A stretch of DNA of 64,000 nt from Euryodendron excelsum (Eukaryota > Streptophyta > Magnoliopsida > Ericales > Pentaphylacaceae). Positions 4,178 through 57,316 of this stretch are shown here, one piece after another (within the stretch, counting starts at the first letter, position 1; each line of letters begins with the position of its first letter). A program made the position numbers and the translations under genes. The stretch covers positions 19,807,001 to 19,871,000 of the forward strand of contig CM065385.1 in the NCBI GenBank assembly GCA_033060915.1, read 5' to 3'. The notes beneath the pieces were generated by a model. It ran no database searches and was not told where the DNA came from. It saw only the letters and a program-made list of their open reading frames with translations.

Positions 4178-4433
4178 CCAATTAGAAAATGTTTAAGGTC
4201 AGCAAGACACGTATCTTTGACTAGATTTAGGCGCTTATTCTAGTGACTACCATGCAATTTTTAACCTGGCTTCACTAAGAGTGACTCCGGAAAGTCTGGG
4301 AAGGAGTTTGGAAGACCGGGAATGACCTGGAAGGCTGGAAAAGAGCAGGAACACTTGAAATAGTGTCCCGGAGGTATTTGACTTGAAAAGTGAGGATAGA
4401 ACGTATTAGAAGGGTTGACCGGGCCTTTAGGGG

Positions 4434-10455: not shown

Positions 10456-10545
10456 CTGGTGCCTGTTGTAGTGGCGCCAAGGCAAATTTCCTCTTGGCGC
10501 CACTCCCATGCCATTTTTTGGCTTGTAGTGGTGCCAGCAACTTAG
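10456..10545 (-). promoter_or_regulatory. Array of three subtype A palindromes, 38-bp register
   Basis: The palindromes start at 10456 (CTGGTGCCTGT-TGT-AGTGGCGCCAA) and 10494 (TTGGCGCCACT…), exactly 38 bp apart, with a degenerate third one ending GTGGTGCCAG near 10545. The spacer is AT-rich and itself resembles the GGCAAATTTTGCC spacer in other copies. The TATA box is 15 bp away. Confidence 0.7.
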
Positions 10546-12198: not shown

Positions 12199-13531
12199 AT
12201 ATTTGCTTGTTGAAGATAGAAAACAATAAAGTAAGAGTCCTATGTTGACCATGAGGCGGTCGGAGGGACGGCATTTGGAAATGTTTTGACAACGAGGGTC
12301 CAAAAATGGATATTAGGCCCAAAAGGCTTTCGAAAAAGAGTTTTGGTGGGAAAAAAAAGGCAAAGCTGCCTGGAATTGGCAACTGGCCCCACTAGGAGTG
12401 GCGCCCTTTGGAAGAAAAGGCTTGGCGCCTCTGCTAGTGGCGTCAGGCTTAGAAACAAAATCGGAAACATTTTTGGTTCGGCATTGCTGTGGGTTTCAAA
12501 AGTTTTTCGCAAAACCGAGAGACATTGCAAGGTAGCCGACTTGAACATTCAAGGAGCACCTCTTGGAGACCATGGATGATTGTCGAAAGGAGACCACGTC
12601 GCCGGAAAAGTCATTGAAAGAGAAGATTTCGCCGGAGTACTCTAAAAAGTGAGTTTTCAAATTTCTGTTGATTTTGATGTGTAGAATTTTGTGTGAACCA
12701 TATAAATAGTAGAAATTGATGTTTTGATATGTTTTGAACATTGTGATGATGTTATTTTTGCATTTTGGTGATTGTTTGATTGAATTTGAGTGATTTTATG
12801 TGATTATGTGAAGAGAATTTTTTGCAAGAACTGGGGGTTTGTTCCTATAGGCTTGGGCATTGGGTTTTCTGGCTAGATTTTTATGTCATGTGCCTTAGAA
12901 AAATGTGTTTAACAACCGTGTGAAGTTTTGTGATTTTTTGAAAACTCGGTGAATTTTTTATTTTTTAAAAAATAGAAAAATACTTAGAAAATTAGGAAAA
13001 TGGGAAAACTTAAGAAATTAATGAAATGTTTTGAGTTTAAAATTTTAAAAAATGTAGGAATATTTTAGAAAATATTTGAAGTGATTTGGAGAAATTTTAG
13101 GATAACTTTGAAAATCATTGATTTATTGGAAAAATAAAACATGTGTTTTTAAAATTTTAAAAAGTGTGCGCAAGTGCTAATATCATGTGATTGTAACGTT
13201 ATGAAGTGCACAATTTATATTTTGTGTTGATGCTGTGGGTATTGTAGGGACCATTTTCAAACAAAACTCTGCCGAAATTTTTAGAAATTCAGGGAAAGAG
13301 TTGGAAAAGGTTTAGAAATAAAATCTCTTTGAAGAAAAAAGACAAAAAAACCCTTGAGATTTGATTTGAAGTTGGAAAATCAAAAGGCGTAGGAAATTTG
13401 TTTTGACTTATCATTTGAAATCTTTTTATTATTTTTTATTGTTTGTTGTTTATTTTATTTTACTTTATTATGTTATTATTTATCTGCATGCACGGTATAT
13501 TAACACCTCTTACCTTGGCTTACCTTTTTAG
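12199..13531 (+). other. 5' exon and leader intron of the antisense gene (3' region of element)
   Basis: On the plus strand, a donor AAA/GTGAGTTTTC at 12649 and an acceptor ACCTTTTTAG ending at 13531 frame an 883-bp AT-rich intron that ends directly before the coding start. Three other copies have the same layout: 19953-21398, 53183-54192 and 54582-55469. A block at about 12891-12930 (TTAGAAAAATGTGTTTAAC) is conserved in all four. The sequence between the PPT and the donor is the presumed promoter and 5' exon. Splicing is inferred from conserved signals, not shown. Confidence 0.6.
12383..12446 (+). promoter_or_regulatory. Two subtype A palindromes upstream of the antisense gene
   Basis: CTGGCCCCACT-AGG-AGTGGCGCCCT starts at 12383 and TTGGCGCCTCT-GCT-AGTGGCGTCAG starts at 12422, 39 bp apart. 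These have the 11-3-11 layout of the palindromes in the adjoining LTR but lie outside it, in the 3' region. They sit upstream of the spliced antisense gene at 13532. No convincing TATA box follows in this copy. Confidence 0.65.
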
Positions 13532-14675: not shown

Positions 14676-16059
14676 TGTCGCGCCCCAGTTTTTGGGTGTC
14701 CAAGGTCCTTTCGACTTGGAGACAAAAAGCACGGAACTCTGTCACTAGAACTCATCCTCCTAGAAGGACAAGTGTGACTAGGTTTGAAAATTGGTTTGAC
14801 TAAGGGCTTTTGAAAAAAATAGAAGTCACCACCTAACTTGATTAAGGTGAGTTAGGGCACCTAAAACTAAGTTTTAATTCGAAGATTAAAGTTAGAGTTT
14901 TTTGGAAAAGGTTTTGAAAACTCCCTCAAGAGAGGGTTTTTAAGAAAATAGGCTGTTTGGCAACCTTTGGAAAGATTTAAACCCTTTTGGAAAATAACTC
15001 TATTTTGGTCATTTGAAAACAGAAATCTATGATTCGGGGGTTGGTTACGTGTAGGGAAGATATCCTAAGATCATCACCCTACCCCGCCCTTTCGGTACCT
15101 ACATGTCTAATCACCCTTTGTTCACTCACTAGAATAACGAGTTACCATTGTCCACTTAATATCCACTTTAGAATTTTGAAAACGGGGTTTAGTCATCACC
15201 TTTCAGATAGATGATGTATGATGCAAATTTTTGGAAGAAGTTTGAAATAATGGGGGTTTTGAAAGAGTTTGGAATAGAAATTTTGAATTGATTGGAATTT
15301 TTTAAAAAGGGATTGGAGTTGAAATAAAAGTTATGACCACACCATTCTAGGTTGCCTACGTATCTCACTTGGCAAGAATCAGGTTAATCGTAGTTCGGGC
15401 AAGAGCTCGATGGAAAATAAGTGCATTAGGGCCTTTGGAAGGTTTGAAGATACTTTAAAGTCTTCGGAAAAGTTTAAGAGACTTTGAGGTCTTTGGAGGT
15501 CTTTGGAAAAGTTTAAGACACTTTGAGGTCTTTGGAAGTTGAAGACTTTTTGTGGTCTTGGAAGTTTTGACTTGAAATTGAATGGTGGAGCGTTTTGAAA
15601 ATGTTTTTGGATCAACTTAAAGGAGTTTTGGAAAATGATTTGGCATGACTCAAGAGAACTTGAAAGTGTTTTTGAAGTCTTATTTTGAAAACCTTGAAGG
15701 CATGACTTTAGAATGTTTTGATAAATTAGTTTTTGAAAGTGGTTTTTGGAAATGGCTAAGGGTTTGGAATACTAATATGGACAACCTTAGAGGTTGTTAT
15801 TGATTTATCACTTGTCCTTGGAATCCCTAACCATGGGAGGGCTAGGGACACCTTAGGTTTGTGACCTTTTGAAAATAATTTTTAGAAATGCCTTGAAGAT
15901 GGAGTGTAGGAACATTTGAAGAATTTATGGAGTTGGTTTTTTGAAATCAAGAGAGTGGGAGGTTTTGGAAAAATGGGTTATGAGAATGGTTTAAAATTGA
16001 GTAATCATTTAGAAAAGGGTTCAAGAGTTGGAACCTTGAAGTGTACTAACCTAGGTTGG

Positions 16060-16300
16060 GTTGGCCTAGGATAAGGGGTGACCTAAGGTTAACTAACTTG
16101 GGTTAGTTTAACATAGGGTTAAGATGACCTATGGTTAGCTAACTAAGGTTAGGTTAACCTAAGGTGAGTGAACTAGGGTCAAGTTGACCTAGGGTTGGGC
16201 AACTAGGGTCGAGTTAACCTAGGTTTGGATAACTAGGGTCAAGTTAACCTAGGGTTGGACAACTAGGGTCAAGTTAACCTAGGGTTGGATTGGAAAATGG
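16060..16300 (+). repeat. About 30-bp degenerate tandem repeat (AACTAGGGTCAAGTTAACCT)
   Basis: Units such as AACTAGGGTCAAGTTAACCT followed by AGGGTTGGAC repeat about seven times. LTR B2 has the same array in reverse complement at about 31840-32200, with different unit counts. It lies in the transcribed half of the subtype B LTR, in place of the subtype A G-poor array. Confidence 0.75.
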
Positions 16301-17534
16301 TTTTGAAAGTTGGTTTAATGCACTTTTGGAAAGAGCTTTTGAAAAACAAAACATGTTATGCAATGGACTTTGGTGGACAATCCTTTTGAAGATCATTTCC
16401 ATGAAAATTTTGACTCTAACCAAAAGTATGGTTTATATGATTGGTGTTTGAAAACCATTCCAAGGAAGATTCCCTCATGGCCATTATAACCTTTATTTTA
16501 ACAAGAGTGGGGATTTCAAAATCAACATAATGATGACAACTTTTGGAAAATCATTTTTGATGCAAAGATGGAGAGAATGCATTTTTGAAAATCATCTTTT
16601 AAGAAGGGTTTTGAAAACCATTTTTCAAGGGAACCATTACATCAAGAGAGGGTTCATATGGCCAAACAAAAGGGAGACCACTCAAGAGAGGGTTTCATAA
16701 GGCCATTCCAACCACTACACTTAAAAGAATGGAAATCTTGAAAATTGGAGAATTAGAAAGCAACCCTTATGCAAGTTAAAATGTCATGATGCCAAAGTGA
16801 GAGTTAAGGGGTTAGTAGGGAACTCTCTAAAGCATGATTTCAAAGGTCTTATCTTAGGCTTCAAGGGGACAACTCTTGGAACCATTTTCGAAAGAAATAT
16901 GGAGCTTGAAAATGGTATGAAAATAAAAGCAATGTAAGTATTGTAGAACATGACAATAAGCATAAAATGAAGCCAAGCATACAAAACATGACCAAAATAG
17001 TAATATACAAGGGGTCATGATCACAAACAAGGCTTTTAGGCTACACCACATAAACAAGGGGCTCCTAGGCCATACCATCTCAAAGTAGGCTAGTGAGAGG
17101 TCCCTCTACACGGTGGCTCTCACTTGCTTTCCTCTAGGCATGATCTAAGAGCCCTCTTGGCTCAAGCATGGAAGAATGGGGGGTTGTAGATGGGGATTAA
17201 AATAGAAAATAGCCTAAGAAGGCTAGGAGGGAGAAGGGAAGAGCGGGGGGAGACACAAATGTAAAAGGGATACCACCTTTTGCCTTCAATATACTTGTAG
17301 TCTTCAATGGATGTCTTGATTGCAGCTTGAATGACTTCAAAAGGGCTTGAGGGGCTGGAATGGAGTGTGTAAGTGTGTATAAGGCCTTGTAGCGGAAGTG
17401 TATAGGCTTGAGGGAGGTAGAATCTAGCCTAAGTGTTCGAGGGGTGGAATATATGTAAGGATTCGAGGTTCTGGAGCAGTTTCAGCAGAGCTTCACATCA
17501 ATTTTGGAAATGGAATATGCAAAGGGGTGGCCTG

Positions 17535-17542
17535 GTATTTAT
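17535..17542 (-). promoter_or_regulatory. LTR B1 TATA box
   Basis: Minus strand GCCTATAAATACCAGG. It is 17 bp downstream of the 25-bp palindrome at 17560-17584, the same arrangement as in subtype A. Confidence 0.7.
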
Positions 17543-17559
17543 AGGCAATCTGGAACAAT

Positions 17560-17584
17560 CCTGGCGCATGTAGGACATGCGCAG
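17560..17584 (-). promoter_or_regulatory. 25-bp hyphenated palindrome (subtype B core)
   Basis: CTGGCGCATGT, AGG, ACATGCGCAGG: the 11-3-11 layout of subtype A with the same outer CTGGCGC but CATGT replacing CCACT. A partial second copy is at 17679-17698 (GCGCATGTAGCATACGCTCC). The segment between is degraded. Confidence 0.7.
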
Positions 17585-17899
17585 GTACTATTCCATTGCC
17601 AAAATGACATGTGACACCCTGTGTACTGGTTAAATCTCGATTGTTGATCGAAAGTTGGTTGATCTGATCAAAATTTAAGCGCATGTAGCATACGCTCCAT
17701 CACCGGGAATGTTCGTCCAAACTTTGTCTCAATAATTGAGTCAACCGGGAAGGTTACGGGGGAATTGGTTGTACCCACGGTGCTCTCTTAGGGTTTCTCG
17801 TAAAATTTCATGTTTTTGGAAAGTTTGAATTGTGTTTAGAAGCATGGGATATCATCTCGAGAAGCGTGCATAAAAGGAAACTTTTGCGGAGCGTTTGTG

Positions 17900-18320
17900 A
17901 TACGCTCCGAGCGTGTTCGAAAGTGGCTGTTTTCGTGCTGTGAGATCGAGGCCTTCGGGAAGTGATCTTTTCGATCGGACCGTACCGATAGAAAGTACTC
18001 TGGAAATACTTTTGGAAATTCCCAGATTTACGCATTTCTCAAGTCGTTTGACGGTGCATTTTGATCGGGGAATCTGGAAAAAAGTCAACCTTGGTGCATT
18101 TTGATCCGATTGTCGAAAGTTATAGTTTTCGCATCGTACGATGGAGGGCTTCAGCAAGTGATCTGTTCGATCGAGCTGTATCGATGGAAAGATCTATGAA
18201 CGAGCTTTCGAGAATTTTCTAATTTACGCATTTCTCGAGTCAGTTGATGGTACGTTATAACTACGGAATTAGGAGAAAAGACAATTTAGGTGGAGTGTCT
18301 GCAAGATGCTCCAGGAAACT
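17900..18320 (-). repeat. About 200-bp direct duplication in subtype B U3
   Basis: Two diverged copies. GTGATCTTTTCGATCGGACC at 17962 is matched by GTGATCTGTTCGATCGAGC at 18158 (196 bp apart), and TTTACGCATTTCTC recurs 206 bp apart. LTR B2 has both copies in reverse complement at about 29640-30060, so the duplication predates the split of the two LTRs. Confidence 0.75.
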
Positions 18321-18446
18321 TTTATCGAATCATGAGCATTTAATGTCGTAAGGTCCTCCTCGGGTTAAACAACAGTCTATGGTGAAACCCTTTGCTCGGA
18401 ATCCTGGGACCGGTGCTATTTCGAGGCATGTTCGAATTGCTAGGGG

Positions 18447-18610
18447 CAAAATGGTCATTTTGGCTAGGATTGGCTGCAAATGGTTAGGAATGGTTTGATG
18501 TGTCGTGTTAAGCGTGTATGGTTTTTCAGGGATATGTTTTGGGAGAGTCATTTACCACTCGGCGGGGTTTATGCCGCGCTGAGGTGTTCAGGGGCAAAAT
18601 GGTCATTTTG
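18447..18610 (-). repeat. U3 modules with CAAAATGGTCATTTTG (subtype B)
   Basis: Perfect copies of the 7-2-7 palindrome at 18447-18462 and 18595-18610, 148 bp apart, each preceded by GGGG. The motif is shared with the subtype A modules even though the sequence around it has diverged. Confidence 0.75.
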
Positions 18611-18794
18611 GCCAGAGTGAGCCAGAATAGGACTGGATTTGGACCAAATGGCGTGCGGGGGATGCCTAATGGTTTAACAACATTTTGGAAGGATGGACTT
18701 ATTGTTTTAAGAGATTTTAAACTTTCTCAAAACGTGCTTGGATGCCCAAGAGCCGGTTGGGTCATTTTTCACCGAGTTGGGCTAACAGGCGCCG

Positions 18795-19150
18795 GTGTTG
18801 ACCTAGGTGTTGGTTCCCGAGACCGCCCGGTCTAGGAAAACTACCTGTGAGGTGTTGGTCTCTAAGAACGCCCGGTCTTAGAGAGCTACTGGTAGGGGTG
18901 TTGTTGGTTCCTGAGAACGCCTGGTTCTAGAAAGCTACCTAGAAGGGTGGTGTTGGTCTCTGAGAACGTCTGGTCTTGGAGAACTACCAAATGAAGAACA
19001 TTCTACATTGGCGGGCTAGCGAGTGCCAGAAGCGAACCATTTGAAATTTGATGAGGTGTTGGTCCCTAAGATCGCTCGATCCCAGGAAGTTACTTGGATG
19101 GCATTGGTTTCCAAGACCGCCTGGTCTGGAAAGTCGTCTGGAATGATGGT
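18795..19150 (-). repeat. About 60-bp repeats with GAGAACGCCCGGTCT-type cores
   Basis: Four to five degenerate units such as GGTGTTGGTCTCTAAGAACG followed by CCCGGTCTTAGAGAGCTACT. Each contains a short inverted repeat around the CCCGG or TCTGG centre. They lie at the upstream end of the LTR, in place of the 81-bp/45-bp arrays of subtype A. Confidence 0.65.
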
Positions 19151-19308
19151 GCTTATGGCTCCAGCAGGTCCTTGTGGGCTTGAGAAGTGACTAGTTGGTT
19201 GGATTGGAGATCGAATGGCTCGTCTTGAGCTTGCATGTGCTAAGGTGTTTGAAAACTAAACCCGGTCGAGCCAGAGAGTGCCGAGCGGGCAAAAATAGGG
19301 TGCTTACA

Positions 19309-19326
19309 GCTGCCCCTCTTTTTCTG
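19309..19326 (-). other. Polypurine tract before LTR B1
   Basis: Minus strand CAGAAAAAGAGGGGCAGC directly followed by TGTAAGCACCC. Same tract as in subtype A elements. Confidence 0.8.
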
Positions 19327-19642: not shown

Positions 19643-19743
19643 CAGGCGCATGTGCTACACATGCCTGTCGTGTTTTAATCTTGGTGCATGTAGTACATGT
19701 GCCACTTTGATTTTTGTGCTGGCCCATCTACTACATGCGCGAG
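19643..19743 (+). promoter_or_regulatory. Three subtype B palindromes at exactly 38-bp spacing, upstream of the antisense gene
   Basis: Palindromes start at 19643 (CAGGCGCATGT-GCT-ACACATGCCTG), 19681 (TTGGTGCATGT-AGT-ACATGTGCCAC) and 19719 (CTGGCCCATCT-ACT-ACATGCGCGAG). Each is 25 bp, and the starts are 38 and 38 bp apart. They carry the GCATGT core of the neighbouring subtype B LTR but lie in the 3' region, facing the antisense gene. A TATA-like box follows 9 bp later. Confidence 0.8.
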
Positions 19744-19751
19744 CCCGTAAG

Positions 19752-19760
19752 CATATAAAC
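19752..19760 (+). promoter_or_regulatory. TATA box of the antisense accessory gene
   Basis: Plus strand CATATAAACAGAGCAG begins 9 bp after the last 25-bp palindrome. It parallels the LTR promoter on the other strand (palindromes, then TATAAATACAGAGC). The match extends past the TATA itself (AACAGAGC versus TACAGAGC), which suggests the two promoters share an origin. Confidence 0.6.
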
Positions 19761-19952
19761 AGAGCAGTTTCGTGTTTTCAGTGTTGCGTATTCGAGTTTA
19801 AGTTTGATTCTAGCATTCTTTCTGAAGGATTCCAAGGGGTTTTGCTTGGGAGTCGTTAGAGGAGTGTTGAGGGATGTCAGGCACGTGTCGGGGATTGTCA
19901 TCGTCGCTGGATTCTCACCTGAAAACTTGGTTTTCGTCGGAGAATTTCAAAG

Positions 19953-21398
19953 GTTAGTTTCTTGAAAATTCGTCGATTTTGATGTATATGTCTTTATTTC
20001 TTACAAATGATCAGTGCATTCCTATGCTTTAAGATGTTTAGAACACAATGATCGGTTTATTTTCGTCATTTAGTGAAGATTGGGTGTGTTTTGGATGATA
20101 TTGCGTGTTTTGTGAAAGTGGGTTTTTGCGGGACACGAAAAATAGCCTCTATAGGCTTGGGCATTGACTCTTTGTGTGTGATTCTTGCACCGAGGACTTT
20201 AGAAAAATGTATAGAACAATCGTATGAAATTTCGTAATTTTCTAAAAAAATTAAATTTTTAAATTTTAGAAATTATGAAAAATAGGAAAAATTGAAGAAA
20301 ATTAGAAAATGGATCCCGTCAGTGGTTGAAAAATCATAAAACATTTTTGGAAAATTGTAGTGATGTTCTTGCGTGTTCCAAGAAATTTTGTGACATTTTT
20401 AGAGATGTGGACGAAATCAAAAAATTTGAATAAGGTTGAAAATTTGGTTTTGAAAATTGTTTTCGAGAATGGGGCATGTGTTCTGGAGGATGGGGTTGTT
20501 TTGGTTGATGGCTTGAGAGGCTTTCAGGCTTTGTGTGTGGTTTGTTGGATTTTGGGGTCGTGCCTTTTTAAGGCAAAACTTCGCTGAAATTTGTAAAAAG
20601 TTTAACACTTAGTTTTGAAAACCTTCCGGAAAAACCAAAATTCCTGAGGATGGAGTGTTTTGGAAAATCCCTAGGGGTAGGATTTTTAAAGGAGGAAATC
20701 CCAAAATTGATTGTAGAAAACTTTGGGAACGGGGCTTTTGAAGGTGAAAGCCCGAGAAACAATTTAAAATGAGACTTTTTGAGGAGAAAGCTTAGAAAAC
20801 CTTTAGAAAATTCTTGAACTAGGGCTATTGGAGGAAAAAAAAACCCAGGAAACCGGCTTGAAATTTTGAAATTAGACTTTTCGAGGAAAAAGCTCGGAAA
20901 ACTGTTAGAAAATTTTGAAATAGGGCTTTTGAAGGAGAAAGTCCGAAAAACCGGTTTGAAATTTTGAAATGAGACATTTTGAGGAAAAAGCCTGAAAAAC
21001 CATTAGAAAATTTTGAAACGGGGCTTTTGAAGGGGAAAGCCTGAGAAACCGGTTTGAAATTTTGAAATGAGACTTTTTGAGGAAAAATCCTGGAAAACCG
21101 TTAGAAATTTTAGGTACCAAACTTTTGTGGGGAAAGCTAGAAAACCATTGAAAATCCTAAATGGTGATAGATGGGGCCCTAGCCCTAGCCCTAGCCCTTC
21201 CACTTTTTCTTTTCTCTCTTTTTTTCTGTTTCTTTTTTTTTTTTTTCTTCTTCTTCTTCTTTTTTCTTTTTTTTTTTTCCTTCTTTCTTTTGTTCTTTTC
21301 TCTCTTTTCTTTTTTTGTATATACATTGACACATTTATTTTTACGCTTTTCATTTATGGTGACTGAATGATTTTCTTGCATGTTGTTATTCTTTCAAG
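19953..21398 (+). other. Leader intron of the antisense gene (subtype B)
   Basis: Donor CAAAG/GTTAGTTTC at 19953, acceptor TATTCTTTCAAG ending at 21398 directly before the ATG, 1446 bp. It holds the conserved TTTAGAAAAATGTATAG block (about 20200-20236), a roughly 99-bp tandem repeat (20760-21110), four CCCTAG units at about 21176-21199 and a long pyrimidine tract to about 21320 that would serve splicing well. Reading frames in this stretch are lysine- or phenylalanine-rich artefacts of composition. Confidence 0.6.
20760..21110 (+). repeat. About 99-bp tandem repeat inside the antisense intron
   Basis: GAGACTTTTTGAGGAAAAAGC-like words recur near 20770, 20875, 20968 and 21068, alternating with GGGCTTTTGAAGGGGAAAGC-like words. 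About 3.5 degenerate copies. Not seen in the subtype A introns, so it explains most of the extra length of this intron. Confidence 0.7.
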
Positions 21399-22443
21399 AT
21401 GTTGGAGGCCGGAGGTGACGGTCCGGACAGGAGGCGCCATGGGAAGGCACCACGGATTGAGGCCGAGGAGGGCGGCGGTAGTTAGGGCAGCTCGGCTAGG
21501 GGTGGCAGTAGGACCGGCTCCACTACTTCAGAAGTGGGACCAGAGGAGGGCGATGTAGTCACGTCTCGACTCCAGGCTTGGTACGCTAGCTATACTGAGG
21601 AGGAGCGACAGATCTTTTGTAGGGCTTTCGGGTATCTGGGATCGCTTCTTTTCGTGAGACTGGTATTGGGCTTGCTTGGTACGCTAGCTATACTGAGGAT
21701 GTCGACACCTCATGAGCATTGGCTTTTGCTGGGCTTGAGGAGCGGCCAGGAGGGTATTGTAGGCCCAGACTTCCCCCGAGGCTTTATGTCCGTCATTTCC
21801 TGTCAGTTGGGGCTTAGACGCCAGGCTTTAGATTTGGCCTCTCACCCTGCTTTTCCAGCGCTGGAGGTGGGTTTTTTGTTGGATCACTTTAAGTTTTGTA
21901 CTAGTCAGACTACTCACCCTAGTGTTTGGCATACTTCCACGGAGTGGCCCATCGCCCGGATGAACGCGTTTGCCCTTATCTTATTGAGTCTTCTGGTGTT
22001 CCCTCAAGGGGATGGTCGGGTGGATGGCAGACTCTGTTCCTTGTTGTTATCGATCCGTCGGGGGTATTCTTATGCTCCATTAGCTGTGGGCGAGACATAT
22101 GTGAGTTTTTCCCAGTTTCAGAGTGTGGAGGACACCTTTTTTAAGGGGTCTCGCCCCTTTTTCAGCTGTGGGCTCTCGAGCATTTGTTCATTCATCGCAT
22201 TACCTGTCACATATGGTATCTGGAGGTTGATCCCATCTGTGCTTTGGTGAGGTCTCAGTAGGAGATTATTGACGGTGTTGACTGCCTCGATTCCCAGATG
22301 GCATGGATGGCATTCCTTTAGATGAGAAGGTTTGATTTGGTTTAGTGGTATGTGGGTTTATGTAATGTTGATTCGTTGCGAGTACGGACTTCGGTTACTA
22401 ATGTGGTGACCTTTATGGTTACTGATGCGGTGCCCAGCTTTGA
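21399..22443 (+). pseudogene. Antisense DUF7745-like accessory gene of a subtype B element, broken
   Basis: ATG at 21399, immediately after the intron acceptor. The frame stays open to the stop at 22248-22250 apart from one TAG at 21483-21485 (codon 29). The N-terminus (MLEAGGDGPDRRRHGK) is charged and low-complexity. The middle has WYASYTEEERQIFCRAFGYL (about 21580-21640), VGPDFPRGFMSVISC, HPAFPALEVGFLLDHFKF and the block MNAFALILLSLLVFPQGD (about 21960-22015), then YSYAPLAVGETYVSF. These last blocks match the copy at about 13990-14150 (LVFSRGDD, YAPMIVGETFMS) and the DUF7745 family as I know it. Further coding-like sequence in another frame runs to about 22440, so a frameshift near 22250 is likely. 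Sequence is then lost at the junction with an LTR remnant. Function unknown. Confidence 0.6.
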
Positions 22444-22813
22444 TGTAAAGACATGACACACACTTATATTCTAGAATGAGAAATATGATTCATTCAAATA
22501 ATTCGCAACGAGTTGCATATGTTTTCACAAGTAATAAGGTCACGATATACCTCTTATTTTTACGATATTATGACATGTCCAACGATACCATGCCATGGTA
22601 TACTTATGACAAGCCACACTACGCCATACATGATCATGTTTCGATTTACACCTCACGCCTATGATACTATGTTCAAATGATATAATATTTCAATATGATG
22701 TTTATGCTATCTATGTTTTCATATCTATGCTTTATATGATTTTGAGAATAATAACATAGATGTATCTAAAGTTATGCGACGAACTAGGACATCCTTTTAT
22801 GCCATGTCATAGC
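22444..22813 (-). mobile_element. LTR remnant of another element, left part
   Basis: AT-rich sequence that differs from the Tat family. With 28198-29073 it would form an LTR of about 1.25 kb, reading on minus from TGTTACGCCCCATGACCCGG (29073) to CTTTACA (22444), interrupted by solo LTR A3. No matching flanking duplication is seen at its outer ends, so the borders are tentative. Confidence 0.45.
22809..22813 (+). repeat. Target site duplication ATAGC, left copy
   Basis: ATAGC directly before TGTAAGCACC; the partner ATAGC is at 28193-28197 directly after GCGCGACA. Five bases, as expected for a Ty3/gypsy integrase. Confidence 0.85.
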
Positions 22814-23004
22814 TGTAAGCACCCCATTTTTGACCGCTCGGCAGTCTACACTCCGTCCAGACTTGTTTTCAAGTCATTTTGGGCATATTCCTATCGAATC
22901 CAATTCTCTAGTTTCAAATTCCATCTTTCCATCGCTTCGTGGGCCTGTCAGGCCCAAATAGAGGCAAAATGACCAAAATGCCCTTAGGGGCATTGTCCTT
23001 TCTT

Positions 23005-23325
23005 ATTCCAATTCCGATCCCTCTCTCGAGACAGTTTATTCCTCGAGACGGTCCGAGTAGTGAAACACTCACAAAACCGTTAGAGTGGCGGAAACACTCA
23101 CAAAACCGTCAGAGTGGCGGAAACACTCACAACACCGTTAGAGTGGCGGAAACACTCAAAACCCAGGCACGTCTCTTCGGAGTCGGTAAGACCCCTTTCC
23201 AATCCCTCTCTCGAGACAGTTTATTCCTCGAGACGGTTCCAATCTAGGCACGTCTCTTCGGAGACGATAAGACCCCTTTCCAATCCCTCTCTCGAGACAG
23301 TTTATTCCTTGAGACGGTCCGAGTA
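23005..23325 (+). repeat. 81-bp-type units split by a 28-bp array
   Basis: CCCTCTCTCGAGACAGTTTA and TTCCTCGAGACGG recur at about 23020, 23205 and 23290. Between them (about 23050-23162) are four units of CGTTAGAGTGGCGGAAACAC with ACTCACAAAAC. Same building blocks as 4981-5330, rearranged. Confidence 0.75.
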
Positions 23326-23343
23326 GCAAAACTACTCACACCC

Positions 23344-23776
23344 CCGTTAGAGTAGCGGAAATACTCAACCGTTAGAGTAGCGGAAATACTCAACCGTTAG
23401 AGTAGCGAAAGTACTTACAGAGCCGTTAGAGTAGCGGAAATACTCACAGAGCCGTCCGAGTAGCGGAAATACTCATAGAACCGTTAGAGTAGCGGAAATA
23501 CTCATTCAACCGTTAGAGTAGCGGAAATACTCATAGAACCGTTAGAGTAGCGGAAATACTCACAGAACCGTTAGAGTAGCGGAAGTACTCACAGAACCGT
23601 TAGAGTAGCGGAAATACTCACAGAACCGTTAGAGTAGCGGAAGTACTCACAGAACCGTTAGAGTAGCGGAAATACTCACAGAACTGTTAGAGTAGCGGAA
23701 ATACTCACAGAACCGTTAGAGTAGTGGAAGTACTCTCAAATCGTCAACCCCGTCCGAGTAGCGGAAATACTCAAAA
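23344..23776 (+). repeat. 29-bp minisatellite, 15 copies
   Basis: The unit is CCGTTAGAGTAGCGGAAATA followed by CTCACAGAA, 15 copies with few differences. Subtype A LTRs elsewhere have only about three degenerate units (4850-4980, 11320-11470, 52050-52200 on the opposite strand), so this is a recent expansion in A3. Confidence 0.9.
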
Positions 23777-23850
23777 CCTAGGTCAATACCCATGTCTGTT
23801 AGTTCACTTCGGTGAAGAATAACCAAATTACCCTTTGGACCTTTTCCGGT

Positions 23851-24336
23851 CAAGATGACCATTTTGCCCCTAGGCATCCGAACGCCCCGGGAACCACACC
23901 GGCTCTGGGTATCAAACCGGTAACCTTCTGAGAATACTTTTTATAGTATTCTCAACCTTCCCTTCTCTTTCCGGATCATTCCGAGTCAGTTCCGGCAAAC
24001 CCGGTACAAAATGACCGTTTTGCCCCTAGAGGGCCGGTCTCCTTCTTCGACCACACCAGCTCTGGGTATCAAACTGGTAATGTCTCGAGAATACTTTTTA
24101 TAGTGTTCTCGACCTTCCTTTACCTTTTCGGACCATTCCGAGTCAGTTCCGGCAAACCTGATACAAAATGACCGTTTTGCCCCTGGTGGGCCGGTCTCCA
24201 TTTTCGACCACGCTGGCCTTGGGAATCAAACCGGCAACCTCTGGGAACATTCTAAATAATGTTTCCAGACCCCAAGTCTTCTTCCGGGACAATTTGAGTC
24301 TGTCCCGGCAGTTTTCCGGTCCGATTGACCGTTTTG
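23851..24336 (+). repeat. Four 157-bp U3 modules in solo LTR A3
   Basis: CAAGATGACCATTTTG at 23851, CAAAATGACCGTTTTG at 24007 and 24164, and GATTGACCGTTTTG near 24323: spacing 156, 157 and about 157 bp. Flanking words (CTGGGTATCAAACCGGTAAC, GAATACTTTTTATAGT) repeat in the same register. The array ends about 260 bp before the palindromes. Confidence 0.8.
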
Positions 24337-24592
24337 CCCCTAAAGGCTCGGTCAACCTTTCCGACACATCCAATCCTCACTTTTCAAGTCAAATACCTCC
24401 GGGACGCTATTTTAAGTGTTCCTGCTCCTTTCCGGCCTTCCGGGTCACTCTCGGCTCCTTCAAATCATTCCCGGACTTTCCGGAGTCACTCCTAGTGAAG
24501 CCAGGCTAAAATTTACATGGTAGTCACTAGTAGAGGCGCCCAAATCTAGTCAAAGATACGTTGCTTGCCGACCTTAATTGTTTCCTAAATGG

Positions 24593-24693
24593 CTGGCGCC
24601 ACTAGCAGTGGCGCCAAGCCAAAAAATGGCCTGGCGCCACTCCTAGTGGCGCCAGTATAAATTTTGCCCTGGCGCCACTGCAACAGGCGCCAG
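24593..24693 (+). promoter_or_regulatory. Three subtype A palindromes at exactly 38-bp spacing
   Basis: Starts at 24593 (CTGGCGCCACT-AGC-AGTGGCGCCAA), 24631 (CTGGCGCCACT-CCT-AGTGGCGCCAG, perfect arms) and 24669 (CTGGCGCCACT-GCA-ACAGGCGCCAG). Spacers are 13 bp (GCCAAAAAATGGC; TATAAATTTTGCC). The second spacer has mutated into TATAAAT, a possible replacement for the lost TATA box. Confidence 0.85.
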
Positions 24694-24780
24694 GCTTGTC
24701 TTCCCTCGATCAACGTGAAAGGGGTCTGCAAACTTAACCTAAGAATCCTATATTTCGATATACAGAGCTCGAGCACCTCC

Positions 24781-24840
24781 AAAACCCTAGCCTCCCTAGG
24801 TTTTTCCAAACCCTAGCCACTATACACAAACCCTAGCCTC
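24781..24840 (+). promoter_or_regulatory. Telo-box-like cluster (AAACCCTAG)
   Basis: Four AAACCCTAG words within about 65 bp (from about 24781), followed by TATACAC repeats to about 24880. Same position as in the other LTRs, about 90-150 bp downstream of the last palindrome. This is where the transcription start and 5' untranslated region are expected. Confidence 0.55.
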
Positions 24841-25299
24841 CTATACACTTATACATTCCCCTATACACTCATACCCTAACCTTCAACCATCCTAGGAGGA
24901 CTTGAAGAGCTGCCATCTAAAGCTTGAAGACAACCCTTGAAGACTGAAGAAGAAGACCAAGACGAAGGCCGAAGACCAAAGACTGCACGGCGCACAAAAT
25001 AAACAAGAAACAAGGTAGGCTCCCTATTTAAATTTCTGCATTCCCCCTCTCTCTTCTCTCTCCAACGCACTTGGGTTTTCTCTATTTTAATCCCCCATCT
25101 CTTCCCCCCCCTTTCTTTGCATGCTTGAAACAAGGGGATTCTCGGTCCATGTGTAGGATTGGACTATTGGAGAGTCACCGTGTCGGAGGCTTTCTTATAG
25201 TCTAACCAAAGACCACGTGGGTCCAGCCCCCTTGATTATGTGGTGAAGCCTTAACCTTGTATGTTCACGACCCCAAATTGCATTGTGCATATCATAGTC

Positions 25300-30332: not shown

Positions 30333-30395
30333 CTAGTGCTTGTAGCACATGCGCTAGGGCAAATTTTGCCTAGGCACATGTCCTACATGTGCCAG
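30333..30395 (+). promoter_or_regulatory. Two subtype B palindromes, 38-bp spacing
   Basis: CTAGTGCTTGT-AGC-ACATGCGCTAG starts at 30333 and TAGGCACATGT-CCT-ACATGTGCCAG at 30371, separated by GGCAAATTTTGCC. A degraded third copy (GTGCCATGTGGC) lies near 30301. Independent confirmation of the 25/38 architecture in subtype B. Confidence 0.8.
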
Positions 30396-51000: not shown

Positions 51001-52745
51001 GTGTGAGTGTATGTGAGCGTATGGGGGCTAGGGTTTGGTGTATAGAGGCTAGGGTTTGGAAACCCTAAAGAGAACTAGGGTTTGGAGAGGCTTCGAGCTC
51101 TGTGTATCGAAGAAGAGAGTTTTTAGACTGAGTTTGCAGACCCTTTTCATGCTGGAGGAGGCTTTGTATTTATAGACAGAGGATTGACCTGGCACCTATT
51201 GTAGTGGCGCCAGGCAAAATTTCCTTCAGGCCAAATTTTAGCTTGGCGCCACTACTAGTGGCACCAGCTACTTAGGAAAGTTTTAATGTCGGCAAGCAAC
51301 GTATCTTCGAAAGATTTGGGTGCCTATACTAGTGACTACCATGCAATTTTTAGCTTGGCTTCATTAGGAGTGACTCTAGAAGGTCCGAGAATGATTTATG
51401 GGGCCAAAAATGGCCCGAAGGGCCGGAAAGGGACATGAACCCTTAGAATAGTGTCTCGAGGAGTTATAGACTTGAAGAATGATGATAGGATGTGTTGAAA
51501 GGGTTGATTGGGCCATTATGGGCAAAACAGTCAATCAGGCCAGAAAGCTGCCGAGATGGACTTGGAATATCTCGGAAAAAGACTCAAGGCCTGGAAACAT
51601 TACCTAGAATGTTCTAGGAGGTTACCGGTTTGATACCTAGAGCTGGTGAGGTTGGAAGAGACGACCGGCCCACTAAGGGCAAAATGGTTATTTTGCATCA
51701 AGTTTGCCGAAACTAACTTAGAATGATCTAGAAGAGTAATTGAAGGCTAGGGATACTATCAGAAACATCCCCGGGAGGTTACTGGTTTGATACTTAGGGC
51801 CAGTGTGATTCTCGGGGTGCTCGAATGCCTAGGGGCAAAGTAGTCATTTTGACCGGAGAGTTTCAGAATTGGCCCGAAACTGACTGGAAGGTACTTAAAC
51901 ATGCCGGATCATCCTTGGGACAATCCTGGAAGGGTGGACTTACCGTTCTGAGGACTTAGGTACTTTCGCAAGAAACGCGCCAAAAATGACCTTAAGGGCA
52001 GTCTGGTCATTTTTCACTGGAGTAGGTTAGCAGGCACTGGTGTTGACCTAGGTTTTGAGTGTTTTTGTCACTCTGACGATGGTCCCATGACATAGGGATT
52101 TGTTAGCAATTCCCCATATCGACCTATTTGTGAGTGTTTCCACCACTTTGACGGTTGCACTGTTTACGAGTATTTTCGTTACTCTAATGGGTCACGATCA
52201 TTCTAGAGACTGCCTAATCTCGGGAAGTTGCTAGGTGGACTTATCGCTTGAGGAATCAACTTTTTCGAAAGATGTGCCGAAATGGACATTTCTTCATTAG
52301 CGGGCTAGCAAGCGTTAAAGGTGGACCGTTCTACCATCTCGGGGACTTGGGGTCTCGTCCCAGTTGACGGGTTTGAAGGCACTTACCATTCTGAAGAGTT
52401 CTAAAAAAACGTGCTGGACACGATGGACTTACTGCTTGAGGAATCAACTATCTCAAAAGGCGTGCCGAATTTAATTAGAACTAGAAGTGGACTTGAAATT
52501 GGATTTAAGATTAAAACGTGAACTTACTGTCTTTGAAAAGACATACCCACTGAAATTGGACTGAACAATGACCCAAGGGCACTTTGGTCATTTTGCCTCT
52601 ATTTGGGCCTAATAGGCCTACGAAGTGATCGATTGACTAGATTATGTTTGGAAAACTTATTAAAATTGGAATATGTCCATATTAACTTGAACTAAAGTCT
52701 GGACGGGTCGAGGACTGCCGAGCGAGCAAAAATGGGATGCTTACA
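48017..52745 (-). mobile_element. Long terminal repeat A5 (subtype A, 3' LTR)
   Basis: A 4729-bp LTR, TGTAAGCATCCC (52745) to GGGTGCGACA (48017) on minus, with a PPT upstream (52746-52763). It is inserted in LTR A4 (left flank GTGTA), so it is the 3' LTR of an element whose 5' half should lie beyond the window. TATA at 51167-51174, palindromes at 51189-51267, telo-box-like words at about 51025-51085, U3 modules at about 51500-52000. Confidence 0.85.
51189..51267 (-). promoter_or_regulatory. Subtype A palindromes of LTR A5
   Basis: CTGGCACCTAT-TGT-AGTGGCGCCAG at 51189-51213 and TTGGCGCCACT-ACT-AGTGGCACCAG at 51243-51267. The 54-bp spacing fits loss of part of a middle copy. TATA box at 51167-51174, 14 bp from the first one. 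Confidence 0.7.
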
Positions 52746-52763
52746 GCTGCCCCTCTTTTTCTG
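52746..52763 (-). other. Polypurine tract before LTR A5
   Basis: Minus strand CAGAAAAAGAGGGGCAGC followed by TGTAAGCATCCC. Confidence 0.8.
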
Positions 52764-54197
52764 TCTTTGCTTGTTAAAGGCAAAAAACGATAGAGTAAAA
52801 GTCCTATGTTCACTGTGAGGCGGTCGGAGGGATGGATTTTGGAATTTTTTGAAAATTGGAGTGTGGAATGAATATTGGGCCCAAAAGGCCTTTGAAATCG
52901 AGTTTTGGCAGGAAAAAGGGCAAAACTGCCTGGAATTGGAAACTTGCACCACTAGCAGTGGCGCCAGGGGCGCCACTGCTAGTGGCACCAGGCCTAAGAT
53001 CAAATCCAGCAAACTGCTGGTTCGACAATGTTGCGGGATTTGAAGAATTTTTGAAAAACTGAGAGGCTTTGTGAGGAAATCGACTTGGATGTTGAAAAAG
53101 TGCTTCCTAAGGATTGCCAAAAGTAGTCGCCGTTGCTGAAAAAGTTGCCAGAAGAGAAGATTTTGCCAGAGAACTCCAAGAGGTGAGTTTTTAACTTTAT
53201 GTTGATTTTGATTTGTAGAATTCCGTTTAAGCCACGTGCACAGTGAAAATTGATGTTTTGATATGTTTTGAACACTATGGTGAAGTTATTTTTGCATTTT
53301 GGTACCTGTTTAATTGAATTTGAGTGATTTTACATGTTTATGTAAAGGAGGTTTATGCAAGAATTGGGAGTTTCTCCCTACAGCTTTGGGCACTGAGTTT
53401 TTCGACTAAATTTTTATACCGTGTGCCTTAGAAAAATGTGTTTAACGGCCGTGTGAAGTTTCGTGATTTTTTTGAAAATTTTTGAATTTTTGATTTTTTA
53501 AAAAATAGAAAAATACTTAGGAAAATAGAAAAATTGAGAAAATTGAAAAATTATTAGAGTTTAGTGTTTAGAAAAATGTAGGGATATTTTAGAAAAAATT
53601 TGAAGTGATTTTGAGAAATTTTAGAATAACTTCAAAAACCATTGGTTTGTTGAAAAATAAAACAAGTCTTTTTGAAAAATTTAGAAATTTGAAAAATGTG
53701 CGCGAGTGTGGGTGCTATGTGATTGTGATGTTGTGAAGTGTGTAGTTTGTGTTTTGTATTGATATTGTGAGTGTGATAGGGATGATTTTTAAGCGGAACT
53801 CTGCCGAAATTGTTCGAAATTAGGGAAAGAGGTGGAAAAGTTTTGGACTAAAATCTTTTTGAAGGGAAAAGACAAAAAACCCTTGAGGTTTTAGAAAATT
53901 CATTTTGACTCGAAGTTGGAAAACCAAAATGTGTAGGAAATTCATTTTAACTCGGAAGCGGAATTTTAAAATCAAAACGTGTAGGAAATTCATTTTAACT
54001 TAGAAGTGGGATTTTAAAATCAAAATATGTAAGAAATTCATTTTGACTTATCATTTGAAATCTTTTTATTTTTTATTATTTGTTTATTTTTATCATTTAT
54101 TTTATTTTATTTTCATTGTGTCTCTTTCTTCTTTTTCTTACTTGTCATGAATTATACTTACCCTATGTCTGTATTCTTACCTTGATCTTCAGGATGG
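52764..54197 (+). other. Antisense 5' exon, leader intron and start codon; gene lost
   Basis: Donor CCAAGAG/GTGAGTTTT at 53183, acceptor TTGATCTTCAG ending at 54192, 1010-bp intron, then ATG at 54194-54196. Directly after the ATG, at 54198, an LTR end begins, so the accessory gene of this element is cut off at codon 1. The intron keeps the TTAGAAAAATGTGTTTAAC block (about 53428-53446) and a threefold repeat of AGGAAATTCATTTTAACT-type words at 53890-54050. Confidence 0.6.
52943..52991 (+). promoter_or_regulatory. Two subtype A palindromes in the 3' region
   Basis: CTTGCACCACT-AGC-AGTGGCGCCAG at 52943-52967 and a second 25-bp palindrome ending GGCACCAG at 52991, almost overlapping. Subtype A, as is the adjoining LTR A5. 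No clear TATA box follows. Confidence 0.65.
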
Positions 54198-55470: not shown

Positions 55471-57316
55471 ATGGCAGACGCAGGTGATGACGGTTCTGAG
55501 AGGAGACGCCGCTCGAGGAAGGCGGCCCGGACAGATTCTACTGGCGGCTTTAGTTGATCTAGAGGTAGTCGACGACCTACCGGACAATCTTCATCCAGTC
55601 AGAGTGGGCAGGGGAGTAGGCTACCTGTCGACCCTTTTCCTCCAGTTGAGCAGGCTTTTGCCGAGGAGATTGATGCTGAGGAAGAGGTACTGGGCCCTGG
55701 TGATCAGGTGACCGGTTATGGGAGAGCTTCTTCGAGGCATAGGCAGCCGGATGTTGACTTGGGAGATATACAGATACCAAACGTCCCACCACTCGGAGAT
55801 CTTGCCTATCACCCCAGCGTGTATTCTAGACAGCATTTGCCGCCTCTGCGGGTATATACAACTTTCAGAGGGGCTGTTCATCAGGTTTTTATGACCATGC
55901 AGCGGGCGGCCCCATCATATCGTGCCTTCTTGGCAGAGATCAAATTTGGCGCTTTCATGGGATTACAGGCTAACCGCCTGAACCGGCATTTAGTATTGGC
56001 GCTTGTTGAGAGGTGGTTCAAGGAGACCGAGACCTTTCATTTTGTCGGCTTTGAGTTGGGTCCTACTCCCTTGGATTGGGCGATTATTACAGAGCTCTCC
56101 TTTATCGGTCAGCGGATCACCTTGCATCCGGTCAGTAGGGACGAGGCCTGTTTGCTGTTAGACTTGCCTCCTCCTAAGCGTTCTACCTTCCCAGTCTCCT
56201 AGATTAGTCAAGAAGACCGTACTTTTGCTACTGAGCCATCGCCTGCCAGGTGGGATATCATGAGACCACGACTTGTGTTGTACATCATCTTTAGCTGTTT
56301 CTGCAACAACAACAAGTCACTCGTGCCGTGCCATTTGGTGAGTATAGTAGCCGATCTTGGAGCGTTGTCTGAGCTGGACTAGGGGTCCTTCTCCTTTGGC
56401 TGCTTCCTTTGGTTCATGCGGGTTCGGACTTCTTCTCGTTAGGGCAACATGACTAGTTTCTGGCACTTCCTCATCTGGTGGAGCTACGAGTACCTTCCTG
56501 TTTGTTGCCCTGCAGTTGTTGAGGATGATCTCTATCCTCGCGCTTTGAGGTGGGCTCGTGACCGGGTAGCCCAGTGATAAAAAATTATCGATTTTGTGAT
56601 GCTCCGGGCTAACCTGGAGTTGATTAAGGCGAGGGATGTGAGCTGGCGGCCCTGCATTGGATCAGTCCATTATGAGACAGTCCGGTACTTAGTCCCGTTA
56701 TCCTTGTCGAGAGCTTCCTTTCTCAGTGATGACACTTGGGAGTCCTATCTTGGAGAGCGACACTAGCCGCAGTTTCATGAGGAGTTCCGATCAGCAAGAG
56801 CTCCACCAGAGTATATGTTTGGAGCCCTGGTGGCAGGAATGCCTATCCCCTACCAGGAGCGTCAGTCGGGTGCCGAGTTCCTGCTTCCTCTGGATACGGA
56901 CTATGCTGCACACTTTGGGGCTCATTCGGTTAGTGCCTTCACCCGGTTTGAGGTAGTAGTCGGCGGGCACGCTGTTGGCCAGGAGGTGGTTGACTTGTGG
57001 CGCCGTGCTGGAGGATATGTGCCCCAGGCCGAGTTTACTGCTGTGAAAGACCAGAAAGACCAGTACCAGATGGAGCGGGACTAATACCAGGCCGAGGTAG
57101 CTTCCCTAACGGCTCGGTTATCTCAGATGGGCGGTGGGGGGGTATGTTATTTTTTCCTTGCTTCTTCTTGCTCTGTTGCTGCTTAGTTCCTTTTGTATGC
57201 AGCTGATTTCTGTTCTATCTTCCCTGCAGGATGGTGATGCTTCGAGTAGTTATCCACCTCCTTCGATGCTGGGTTTCGGGGATTTTGATCTAGATGATAT
57301 CGACTTCGACCTGTGA
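55471..57316 (+). pseudogene. Antisense plant-mobile-domain-like (PMD) gene in a Tat element, nonsense-decayed
   Basis: One continuous frame from ATG 55471 to 57141, then an 88-bp phase-0 intron (GTATGT at 57142, TTCCCTGCAG ending at 57229) and a last exon to TGA 57314-57316: 585 codons. No frameshift. In-frame stops: 55555, 56200, 56380, 56440, 56575 with 56578, 56764 and 57082. The N-terminus is Arg/Ser-rich (MADAGDDGSERRRRSRKAAR). The PMD-like core at about 55960-56110 has RLNRHLVLALVERWFKETET, then FHFVGFELGPTPLDWAIITE. Further on come DVSWRPC (about 56637) and a Gln/Glu-rich coiled-coil-like end (about 57040-57125). The last exon is acidic and aromatic (GFGDFDLDDIDFDL), like an activation or docking tail. 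PMD proteins are plant transposase-derived regulators; that role here is inference. Confidence 0.65.
57142..57229 (+). other. 88-bp intron within the PMD gene
   Basis: GGGGG/GTATGTTATTTTTTCC at the donor, CTATCTTCCCTGCAG/GATG at the acceptor, T-rich throughout. It lies between codons, so removing it joins the coiled-coil region to the acidic tail in frame. Confidence 0.65.

What the first reader, a model, noticed from the sequence alone, without database searches (positions are those of the whole stretch)
19643..19760. A second promoter inside the element: three 25-bp palindromes in exact 38-bp register, then a TATA box, facing an antisense gene
Seen: palindromes start at 19643, 19681 and 19719, each 11-3-11, with CATATAAACAGAGC 9 bp after the last. 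The same layout (palindromes, then TATAAATACAGAGC) forms the LTR promoter on the opposite strand. Four palindrome starts (30333, 30371, 24593 to 24631 to 24669) independently show the same 38-bp step. Known: repeated palindromes upstream of the TATA box are described for Sirevirus LTRs. I do not recall such an array for Tat/Ogre elements, nor a duplicate driving an internal antisense gene. Inference: the accessory gene is expressed from its own promoter, built from the LTR promoter's cis-module.
Basis: partly seen in the sequence, partly recalled or inferred. Interest (0 to 1): 0.9.

Follow-up and report, generated by a model that had tools for sequence, protein, structure and literature searches.

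The report
Shared palindrome switch in two promoters
A family of plant jumping genes carries the same set of evenly spaced, mirror-image DNA motifs in front of its main promoter and in front of a hidden gene on the opposite strand, which suggests that one protein switches both on together.

Summary
Three imperfect 11-3-11 palindromes (8 of 11 arm pairs each) lie at exact 38-bp steps before TATAAACAGAGC, 334 bp inside the 3' LTR edge of a minus-strand LTR retrotransposon. They face an antisense gene (leader exon, intron, DUF7745-like ORF). In the same 1.06-Gb genome, 33 of 40 fetched places with this TATA word are copies of the promoter; 28 of 33 keep both 38-bp steps. LTR promoters carry the same palindromes at 38 bp with TATAAATA 14 or 17 bp downstream. 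New here: two arm types exist (GGCGCCACT, GGCGCATGT), and wherever a sampled element had both arrays the types agreed (11 of 11 among 18 junctions; 3 of 3 in the window), though this is about one evolutionary switch. The inner half-site that switches is also the constrained part (non-CpG diversity 0.069 against 0.198). Best reading: a multi-site binding module for one trans-acting dimer serves both the genomic RNA and the antisense gene. Transcription and binding are not shown. Precedents: Sirevirus palindromes (LTR and upstream of env) and Grande gene23 (antisense gene, own promoter). A new variant of a known kind.

The parts
19643..19667 (.). palindrome 1 of the antisense-promoter array (ATGT type)
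   Evidence: 17 of 22 to the ATGT type, 8 of 11 arm pairs
19681..19705 (.). palindrome 2, +38 bp
   Evidence: 18 of 22, 8 of 11 arm pairs
19719..19743 (.). palindrome 3, +38 bp, proximal to the TATA box
   Evidence: 19 of 22, 8 of 11 arm pairs
19752..19765 (+). CATATAAACAGAGC, TATA box of the antisense promoter (start site inferred at about 19780-19800)
   Evidence: 60 exact places in the genome against 10 for the reversed word
19780..19952 (+). inferred non-coding leader exon; donor CAAAG|GTTAGT at 19952
   Evidence: exon end and donor align with B, F and G; 21 of 33 family copies match one of eight donor words 186-210 bp after the TATA word; start inferred
19953..21398 (+). inferred intron, acceptor TTTCAAG
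21399..22250 (+). antisense coding exon, DUF7745-like by homology to B, interrupted by one stop after codon 28
   Evidence: B and C share 41% over 219 aa; two pieces of the B gene hit PF24924 at 1.1e-4 and 1.7e-4, below its cut-off; C itself hit no family; other copies read through that codon
19309..19325 (-). polypurine tract AGAAAAAGAGGGGCAGC next to the 3' LTR
   Evidence: its last 13 bases plus the LTR start occur 1872 times in the genome, control 0
14676..19308 (-). 3' LTR of element C (TGTAAGC...GCGCGACA)
17561..17585 (.). palindrome in the promoter of LTR C (ATGT type), TATAAATA 17 bp downstream on the minus strand
12383..12446 (.). antisense-promoter palindromes of element B (CACT type, step 39)
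52943..52991 (.). antisense-promoter palindromes of element F (CACT type, step 24)
10456..10480 (.). palindrome in the promoter of LTR B (CACT type), TATAAATACAGAGC 14 bp on (minus)
51189..51267 (.). palindromes in the promoter of LTR F (CACT type)
24593..24693 (.). three palindromes at 38-bp steps in solo LTR D (CACT type)
30333..30395 (.). two palindromes at a 38-bp step in LTR E (ATGT type)
55558..56202 (+). antisense gene of the F/H element, plant mobile domain
   Evidence: PF10536, E 1.1e-07, 31.8 bits against a cut-off of 34.9

Best explanation
The array is the upstream activating part of a TATA promoter for the antisense accessory gene of a large Ty3/gypsy-type plant retrotransposon, and the same module stands upstream of the LTR's TATA box. 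Each 25-bp palindrome is most likely a site for a dimeric DNA-binding protein (half-site A-xxx-GCGC: ACATGCGC in one lineage, AGTGGCGC in the other). Two or three sites at fixed 38-bp steps suggest side-by-side binding. The element thus puts its genomic RNA and its antisense gene under one trans-acting factor. Shown by sequence: array, spacing, position relative to a conserved exon end and donor, constraint on the inner half-site, and agreement of arm type between the two promoters. Inferred: promoter use, dimer binding, activation rather than repression. Open: whether the factor is a host protein or made by the element.
For: Position: array end to splice donor 191-209 bp in three elements. 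Spacing: 28 of 33 copies 38/38; 9 of the 11 internal arrays found among 18 sampled junctions have a 38 step; 17 of 20 short steps in the first 53 places listed. LTR side: sites in 26 of 33 copies, a 38 step in 20, TATA 17 bp downstream in 20 of 26; TATAAATA 14 bp after the array in 8 of 8 CACT LTRs printed and 17 bp in 3 of 3 ATGT LTRs. Constraint: among 34 promoter copies (79% mean identity) the 22 non-CpG inner half-site columns have diversity 0.069 against 0.198 for 399 background columns, p 0.0012; among 20 LTR arrays 0.041 against 0.182, p 0.0002. Agreement of type: 11 of 11 sampled elements with both arrays, 26 of 26 family copies with sites at the LTR promoter, 3 of 3 in the window. The array is not a piece of inserted LTR.
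Against: No transcript, chromatin or binding data. Without the CpG correction the arms are no less diverse than upstream sequence (0.202 against 0.215), and the outer arms are not conserved (0.219 against 0.198). As 11-bp windows with their loops, the three cores are not the most conserved places: for cores 3, 1 and 2, respectively 6, 34 and 40 of 411 windows are lower. Indels in the array (6 of 33 copies) are no rarer than in some neighbouring 38-bp stretches (1 to 33 of 33), so fixed spacing inside the family may partly be shared descent. The TATA box is not universal: CACT-type internal promoters have TTAAAA there in 9 of 9, and B-int and F-int lack TATAAA. 7 of 18 sampled junctions show no internal array within 500 bp. 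Agreement of type reflects about one switch on the tree. Four family copies also hold weak CACT-labelled matches (15 of 22) further up the LTR. The ORF behind this array is interrupted.
Confidence: 0.75

Rival explanations
1. The array works as RNA or DNA hairpins (export, packaging, cruciform, or a source of small RNA) near the 3' end of the genomic RNA, not as a promoter.
For: The five arrays folded as single strands with DNA parameters all fold better than shuffles (z -3.1 for this array to -10.9 for D), and the U3 array of the 3' LTR would also be in the genomic RNA (inference).
Against: No compensatory change beyond shuffles in 29 arrays (78.8% paired against 78.8%; covariation 0.134 against 0.135). 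Broken pairs in 19 window sites do not favour G-U on either strand (12 against 9, 25 other). Constraint lies in the inner half-site. The fixed distance to a TATA-like box in two different promoters is unexplained.
Confidence: 0.08
2. The arrays are passive: 38-bp tandem repeats inherited by amplification, with no present function.
For: Copies share descent; whole arms diverge like neighbouring sequence without CpG correction; the array has no fewer indels than some neighbours; many copies are decayed.
Against: The inner half-sites are about three to four times less diverse than non-CpG background in both promoters. The same step is kept in lineages of both arm types.
Confidence: 0.13
3. The factor is made by the element itself: the antisense protein binds the palindromes in both promoters (self-regulation or anti-silencing, as VANC does in VANDAL transposons).
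For: Arm type agrees in both promoters, the array stands in front of the accessory gene, and the gene's leader is basic (RRRHGKA). VANC and its repeated target motif are reported to evolve together (PMC5735166, passages).
Against: The main domain does not follow arm type: behind ATGT promoters 16 of 33 copies have a PMD-like and 5 of 33 a C-like (DUF7745-like) protein, none both, and behind CACT promoters F has PMD and B DUF7745. No DNA-binding fold was looked for. A host factor switch with array homogenisation would look the same.
Confidence: 0.2

Closest known systems
Sirevirus palindromic repeated motifs (Bousios et al. 2010, PMC2829016; abstract and passages read)
   Same: Palindromic boxes clustered upstream of the LTR TATA box, with further copies upstream of an accessory gene (env) in the same element.
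   Different: Ty1/copia elements; core CGG-CCG; env belongs to the sense strand; no fixed 38-bp step is named in the passages read.
Grande gene23 antisense accessory gene with its own promoter (Gomez-Orte et al. 2013; seen only as cited in PMC7264820 and PMC11963269)
   Same: Antisense gene between pol and the 3' LTR, transcribed from its own upstream promoter, nuclear protein.
   Different: The review text read describes no link between that promoter and LTR promoter motifs; another protein.
Ogre-lineage elements with a plant mobile domain extra ORF (PMC6317226, passages)
   Same: Plant mobile domain in the extra ORF (57% of Ogre elements there).
   Different: No promoter array is mentioned in the passages read; lineage here not proven by RT or aRH.
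VANDAL/VANC anti-silencing (PMC5735166, passages)
   Same: A short motif repeated in the element's own non-coding regions, with motif types that differ between related families.
   Different: Other elements (VANDAL); the binder is known there and is element-encoded; the motif YAGTATTAY is arrayed in one orientation, not as palindromes at fixed spacing.

Membership tests
Ogre lineage (Ty3/gypsy, Tat clade) | Plant mobile domain in the extra ORF (57% of Ogre elements, PMC6317226) | tested here: inconclusive
   PF10536 at 1.1e-07 in element F, below the curated cut-off; 16 of 33 family copies have an F-like protein; element C carries a DUF7745-like ORF instead
Ogre lineage (Ty3/gypsy, Tat clade) | aRH domain between RH and INT, RT phylogeny | not tested
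   No pol frame of elements B, C or F was identified in the window
Ogre lineage (Ty3/gypsy, Tat clade) | tRNA-Arg primer binding site (lineage link recalled) | tested here: inconclusive
   GCTGGCGACTCCACTAGGGACCA follows the LTR end of H; the resemblance to the tRNA-Arg 3' end is from memory
Retand lineage | Antisense ORF with Transposase_28 domain; LTRs of 315-1194 bp (PMC11963269) | tested here: not met
   LTR C is 4633 bp; no PF04195 in the antisense ORFs scanned
Sirevirus repeated-motif promoter | CGG-CCG palindromes and PPT AGGGGGAG in a Ty1/copia element | tested here: not met
   Arms are GGCGCCACT or GGCGCATGT, PPT is AAAGAGGGGCAGC
Antisense accessory gene with own promoter (Grande type) | Gene next to the 3' LTR on the strand opposite to the element | tested here: met
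   ORF on + at 21399-22250, PPT and 3' LTR on - at 19325-14676; that pol lies on its far side was not seen in element C
Antisense accessory gene with own promoter (Grande type) | Transcript starting at the internal promoter; nuclear protein | not testable with these tools
   No RNA or localisation data
VANC-like self-targeting system | Motif type agrees across the element's own regulatory regions | tested here: met
   11 of 11 elements with both arrays, but about one switch on the tree
VANC-like self-targeting system | Element-encoded protein type follows motif type | tested here: not met
   At domain level: PMD-like and DUF7745-like proteins behind both arm types; finer differences not tested
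VANC-like self-targeting system | The protein binds the motif | not testable with these tools
   No binding data

The most novel reading that the evidence does not exclude
An LTR retrotransposon lineage has a self-addressed regulatory circuit: a factor of its own (possibly the antisense protein, through its basic leader) recognises the palindromes in its LTR and in the gene's own promoter. Lineages part company by switching the inner half-site in both promoters at once, so that each lineage answers only to its own factor. This would be the retrotransposon counterpart of the VANC systems of VANDAL elements.
Probability: 0.15. Interest if true: 0.9.

Novelty: new variant of a known kind. Interest (0 to 1): 0.62.

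Why it matters
What antisense genes of plant Ty3/gypsy elements do is called unknown in the two papers read in part (PMC7264820, PMC11963269). A motif shared by the LTR promoter and the antisense promoter, of the same type in both, says the two transcription units probably answer to one factor and gives an exact bait (the 25-bp site, two natural forms, 38-bp arrays) for finding it. If the factor is element-encoded, it would be an LTR-retrotransposon parallel to transposon anti-silencing. The motif is also very abundant: 19,262 palindromes with perfect outer arms in this genome against 1 for the control, enough that it might touch host gene control (speculation).

Tried and rejected
Led nowhere: protein search with the C ORF found no relative at E up to 1; with the F ORF one nameless 131-aa fragment at 71%. 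Exact scans for the CACT palindrome in the viral and prokaryote collections found none. RNA hairpin covariation was tested and not found. An inserted LTR fragment as the source of the internal array was rejected. The shared stop after codon 28 in the C and F ORFs looked like programmed readthrough; other copies read through that codon, so I take it as decay. The idea that protein domain type sets arm type was rejected at domain level. A first count of 21 of 33 copies matching the C protein was mostly its leader; without the leader it is 5 of 33. A genome survey for further arm types (a pattern that excludes CACT arms) did not complete, so a third type is not excluded.

Paper searches bearing on palindrome arrays in Tat, Ogre or Grande LTRs: in the held PMC library only. 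None of the titles and abstracts listed showed one for these lineages; the listings were capped, and most subscription papers are not held.

Limits of the samples: of the 59 places outside the window with the TATA word, 40 were fetched and 19 were not; the 40 were chosen by that word, so TATA conservation among them is not evidence. A copy counted as family if it held at least one 15-of-22 match within 130 bp upstream; seven of the 40 did not and were dropped. The 20 LTR arrays were chosen by match to the motif, which bears on core and outer arms alike. The 18 junctions come from the first 100 listed of 1872, on two contigs, taken at about every fifth. The five copies off the 38/38 register were left out of the alignment (28 of 33 plus the window used). 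The fetched stretches end 2.7 kb after the TATA word, so 12 of 33 copies show neither protein type.

Full report
What is there. The window is a nest of LTR retrotransposons of one superfamily in a 1.06-Gb genome (window = C9:19807001-19871000). The LTRs measured are 4.6-5.4 kb, begin TGTAAGC (TATAAGC in B) and end GCGCGACA or a close variant; the polypurine tract ends AAAGAGGGGCAGC. That junction occurs 1872 times in the genome, control 0. The finding lies in element C (minus strand): 3' LTR 14676-19308, polypurine tract 19309-19325, then the internal region on the high side. On the plus strand, antisense to the element, come three palindromes (19643, 19681, 19719), CATATAAACAGAGC (19752), a conserved splice donor (after 19952), an acceptor directly before an ATG at 21399, and an interrupted ORF.

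The gene. The homologous ORF of element B shares 41% over 219 aa with that of C, and two of its pieces match DUF7745 at 1.1e-4 and 1.7e-4; the C ORF itself hit no Pfam family. Element F has a plant mobile domain there (1.1e-07, just below the curated cut-off). Leaders are alike: MLEAGGDGPDRRRHGKA in C, MADAGDDGSERRRRSRKA in F; other copies have starts such as MSEAGGDGSDRRRHRKV and read on without the stop. Behind this same promoter family, 16 of 33 copies carry an F-like (PMD) protein and 5 of 33 a C-like protein, none both; 12 of 33 show neither within the stretch fetched. One copy, L009, reaches the DUF7745 cut-off (2.2e-06); L043 shows PMD only weakly in Pfam (0.0074).

Is the array more than chance? 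Yes. With no motif assumed, equal-step triplets of palindromes occur in the window only at 38 bp, at 19643 and 24593; shuffles, run for that step, gave none in 200. With two motif types, 20 matches of 17 or more of 22 were found, none in 200 shuffles; all 20 lie in LTR promoter regions or in the antisense-promoter position of elements B, C and F.

Position. From array end to the donor is 209 bp in C, 202 in B and 191 in F (arithmetic), while the distance from the LTR edge varies more (334, 201, 197). The array is thus tied to the antisense exon rather than to the end of the element. Internal and LTR promoters share only the array itself.

Copies elsewhere. Of 60 genome places with CATATAAACAGAGC (control 10), one is the window's own; 40 of the other 59 were fetched. 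33 of 40 are copies of this promoter and 7 look like chance. Both steps are 38 bp in 28 of 33; the others are 39/38 (2), 38/37, 33/44 and 33/38. In 26 of 33 LTR sites lie about 2.0-2.3 kb away, all ATGT; 20 have a 38-bp step there, and in 20 of 26 the LTR TATA is 17 bp after the array. Four copies also hold weak CACT-labelled matches (15 of 22) further up the LTR. TGGCGC-N11-GCGCCA occurs 19,262 times in the genome, control 1; among the first 53 distinct places listed, all on C1, the 20 steps under 300 bp are 38 (17), 76 (2) and 62 (1).

Two arm types that agree. Elements use either GGCGCCACT-N3-AGTGGCGCC or GGCGCATGT-N3-ACATGCGCC. Of 18 junctions taken from the first 100 listed, 11 had an internal array within 500 bp: 9 CACT and 2 ATGT. 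Each of these 11 had LTR sites of the same type; in L054 the LTR evidence is one weak site (16 of 22). Only one internal palindrome was found in L055 and in L062. The other seven: L059 (LTR CACT), L049 (LTR ATGT) and L057, L058, L060 (LTR CACT, nearer the LTR start) lack the internal array, and L061 and L065 showed neither. In the window B, C and F agree. On the LTR-start tree the CACT and ATGT rows fall in separate clades, and on the internal-flank tree too except L049, whose internal part groups with L061. CACT also occurs in a third LTR clade. So this is about one switch, but one that changed three bases in each of many half-sites in both promoters while the 38-bp step stayed.

Constraint. 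In 34 promoter copies of 79% mean identity, 22 inner half-site columns outside CpG have diversity 0.069 against 0.198 for 399 background columns (Mann-Whitney p 0.0012). Outer arms (0.219) and spacers (0.187) are like background. In 20 LTR arrays the figures are 0.041 against 0.182 (p 0.0002; outer arms 0.196). Against this: whole arms without the CpG correction are like upstream sequence (0.202 against 0.215); as 11-bp windows with loops, 34, 40 and 6 of 411 windows are lower than cores 1, 2 and 3; and indels are no rarer in the array (6 of 33 copies) than in some neighbouring stretches. Columns and related copies are not independent, so the p values are a guide. The GCGC part cannot be judged, since it sits on CpG (13 of 26 C-to-T or G-to-A mismatches in 19 window sites are at CpG). 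Pairing between arms shows no excess covariation, which fits DNA half-sites better than RNA hairpins.

Core promoter. LTRs: TATAAATA 14 bp after the array in 8 of 8 CACT copies printed, 17 bp in 3 of 3 ATGT copies. Internal: TATAAACAGAGC in this family (by selection), CTTAAAACAGAGC and ACTTAAACAGAGC in L064 and L066, TTAAAA in 9 of 9 CACT copies. The internal box is thus often a weak TATA.

How it most likely works (inference). A dimeric protein binds each palindrome. Several dimers at 38-bp steps activate the LTR promoter (genomic RNA) and the antisense promoter (accessory protein) together. Whether the factor comes from host or element is open: the concerted type is what a self-recognition system would show, but the domain type of the antisense protein does not follow arm type.

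What is known. Sireviruses have palindromic boxes upstream of the LTR TATA box and upstream of env (PMC2829016, abstract and passages). Grande gene23 is an antisense gene with its own promoter (as told in PMC7264820, two of three parts read). Plant mobile domains are found in 57% of Ogre elements (PMC6317226, passages). The Retand paper (PMC11963269, two of five parts plus passages) proposes a regulatory role for antisense proteins. PMC7156037 was read in passages on plant mobile domain proteins. VANC is the closest working model for self-recognition (PMC5735166, passages). I found no report of this array in Tat or Ogre elements in the searches named in Tried and rejected. Lineage membership is likely but unproven, since no pol of these elements was read.

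Noticed in passing
22809-28197: LTR D (22814-28192, +) is a solo LTR with 5-bp target duplication ATAGC on both sides.
   Followed up: yes
L049 and L061: LTR-start tree and internal-flank tree disagree for these two copies, which suggests mosaic elements.
   Followed up: no
L057, L058, L060, L065: A third LTR clade has tandem-looking repeats of about 60 bp next to the polypurine tract in place of the antisense promoter; L057, L058 and L060 have a CACT array nearer the LTR start (repeat length judged by eye).
   Followed up: partly
13533-14417, 21399-22250, 55471-56202; family copies L009-L048: One leader exon and basic N-terminus is followed by alternative, mutually exclusive main domains (PMD-like in 16 of 33, C-like in 5 of 33).
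   Followed up: partly
54198-55481: Inside the F/H element lies a fragment of an LTR end and a second copy of the antisense leader exon and intron start.
   Followed up: no
48017-64000: The F/H element shows gag (60543-61100, -) and the antisense gene, but among ORFs of 150 aa or more no pol domain was seen; possibly non-autonomous.
   Followed up: no
24480-24504, 4266-4290, 17676-17700, 30218-30242: A further degenerate palindrome stands 113-115 bp (about three steps of 38) from the LTR arrays of both types.
   Followed up: partly
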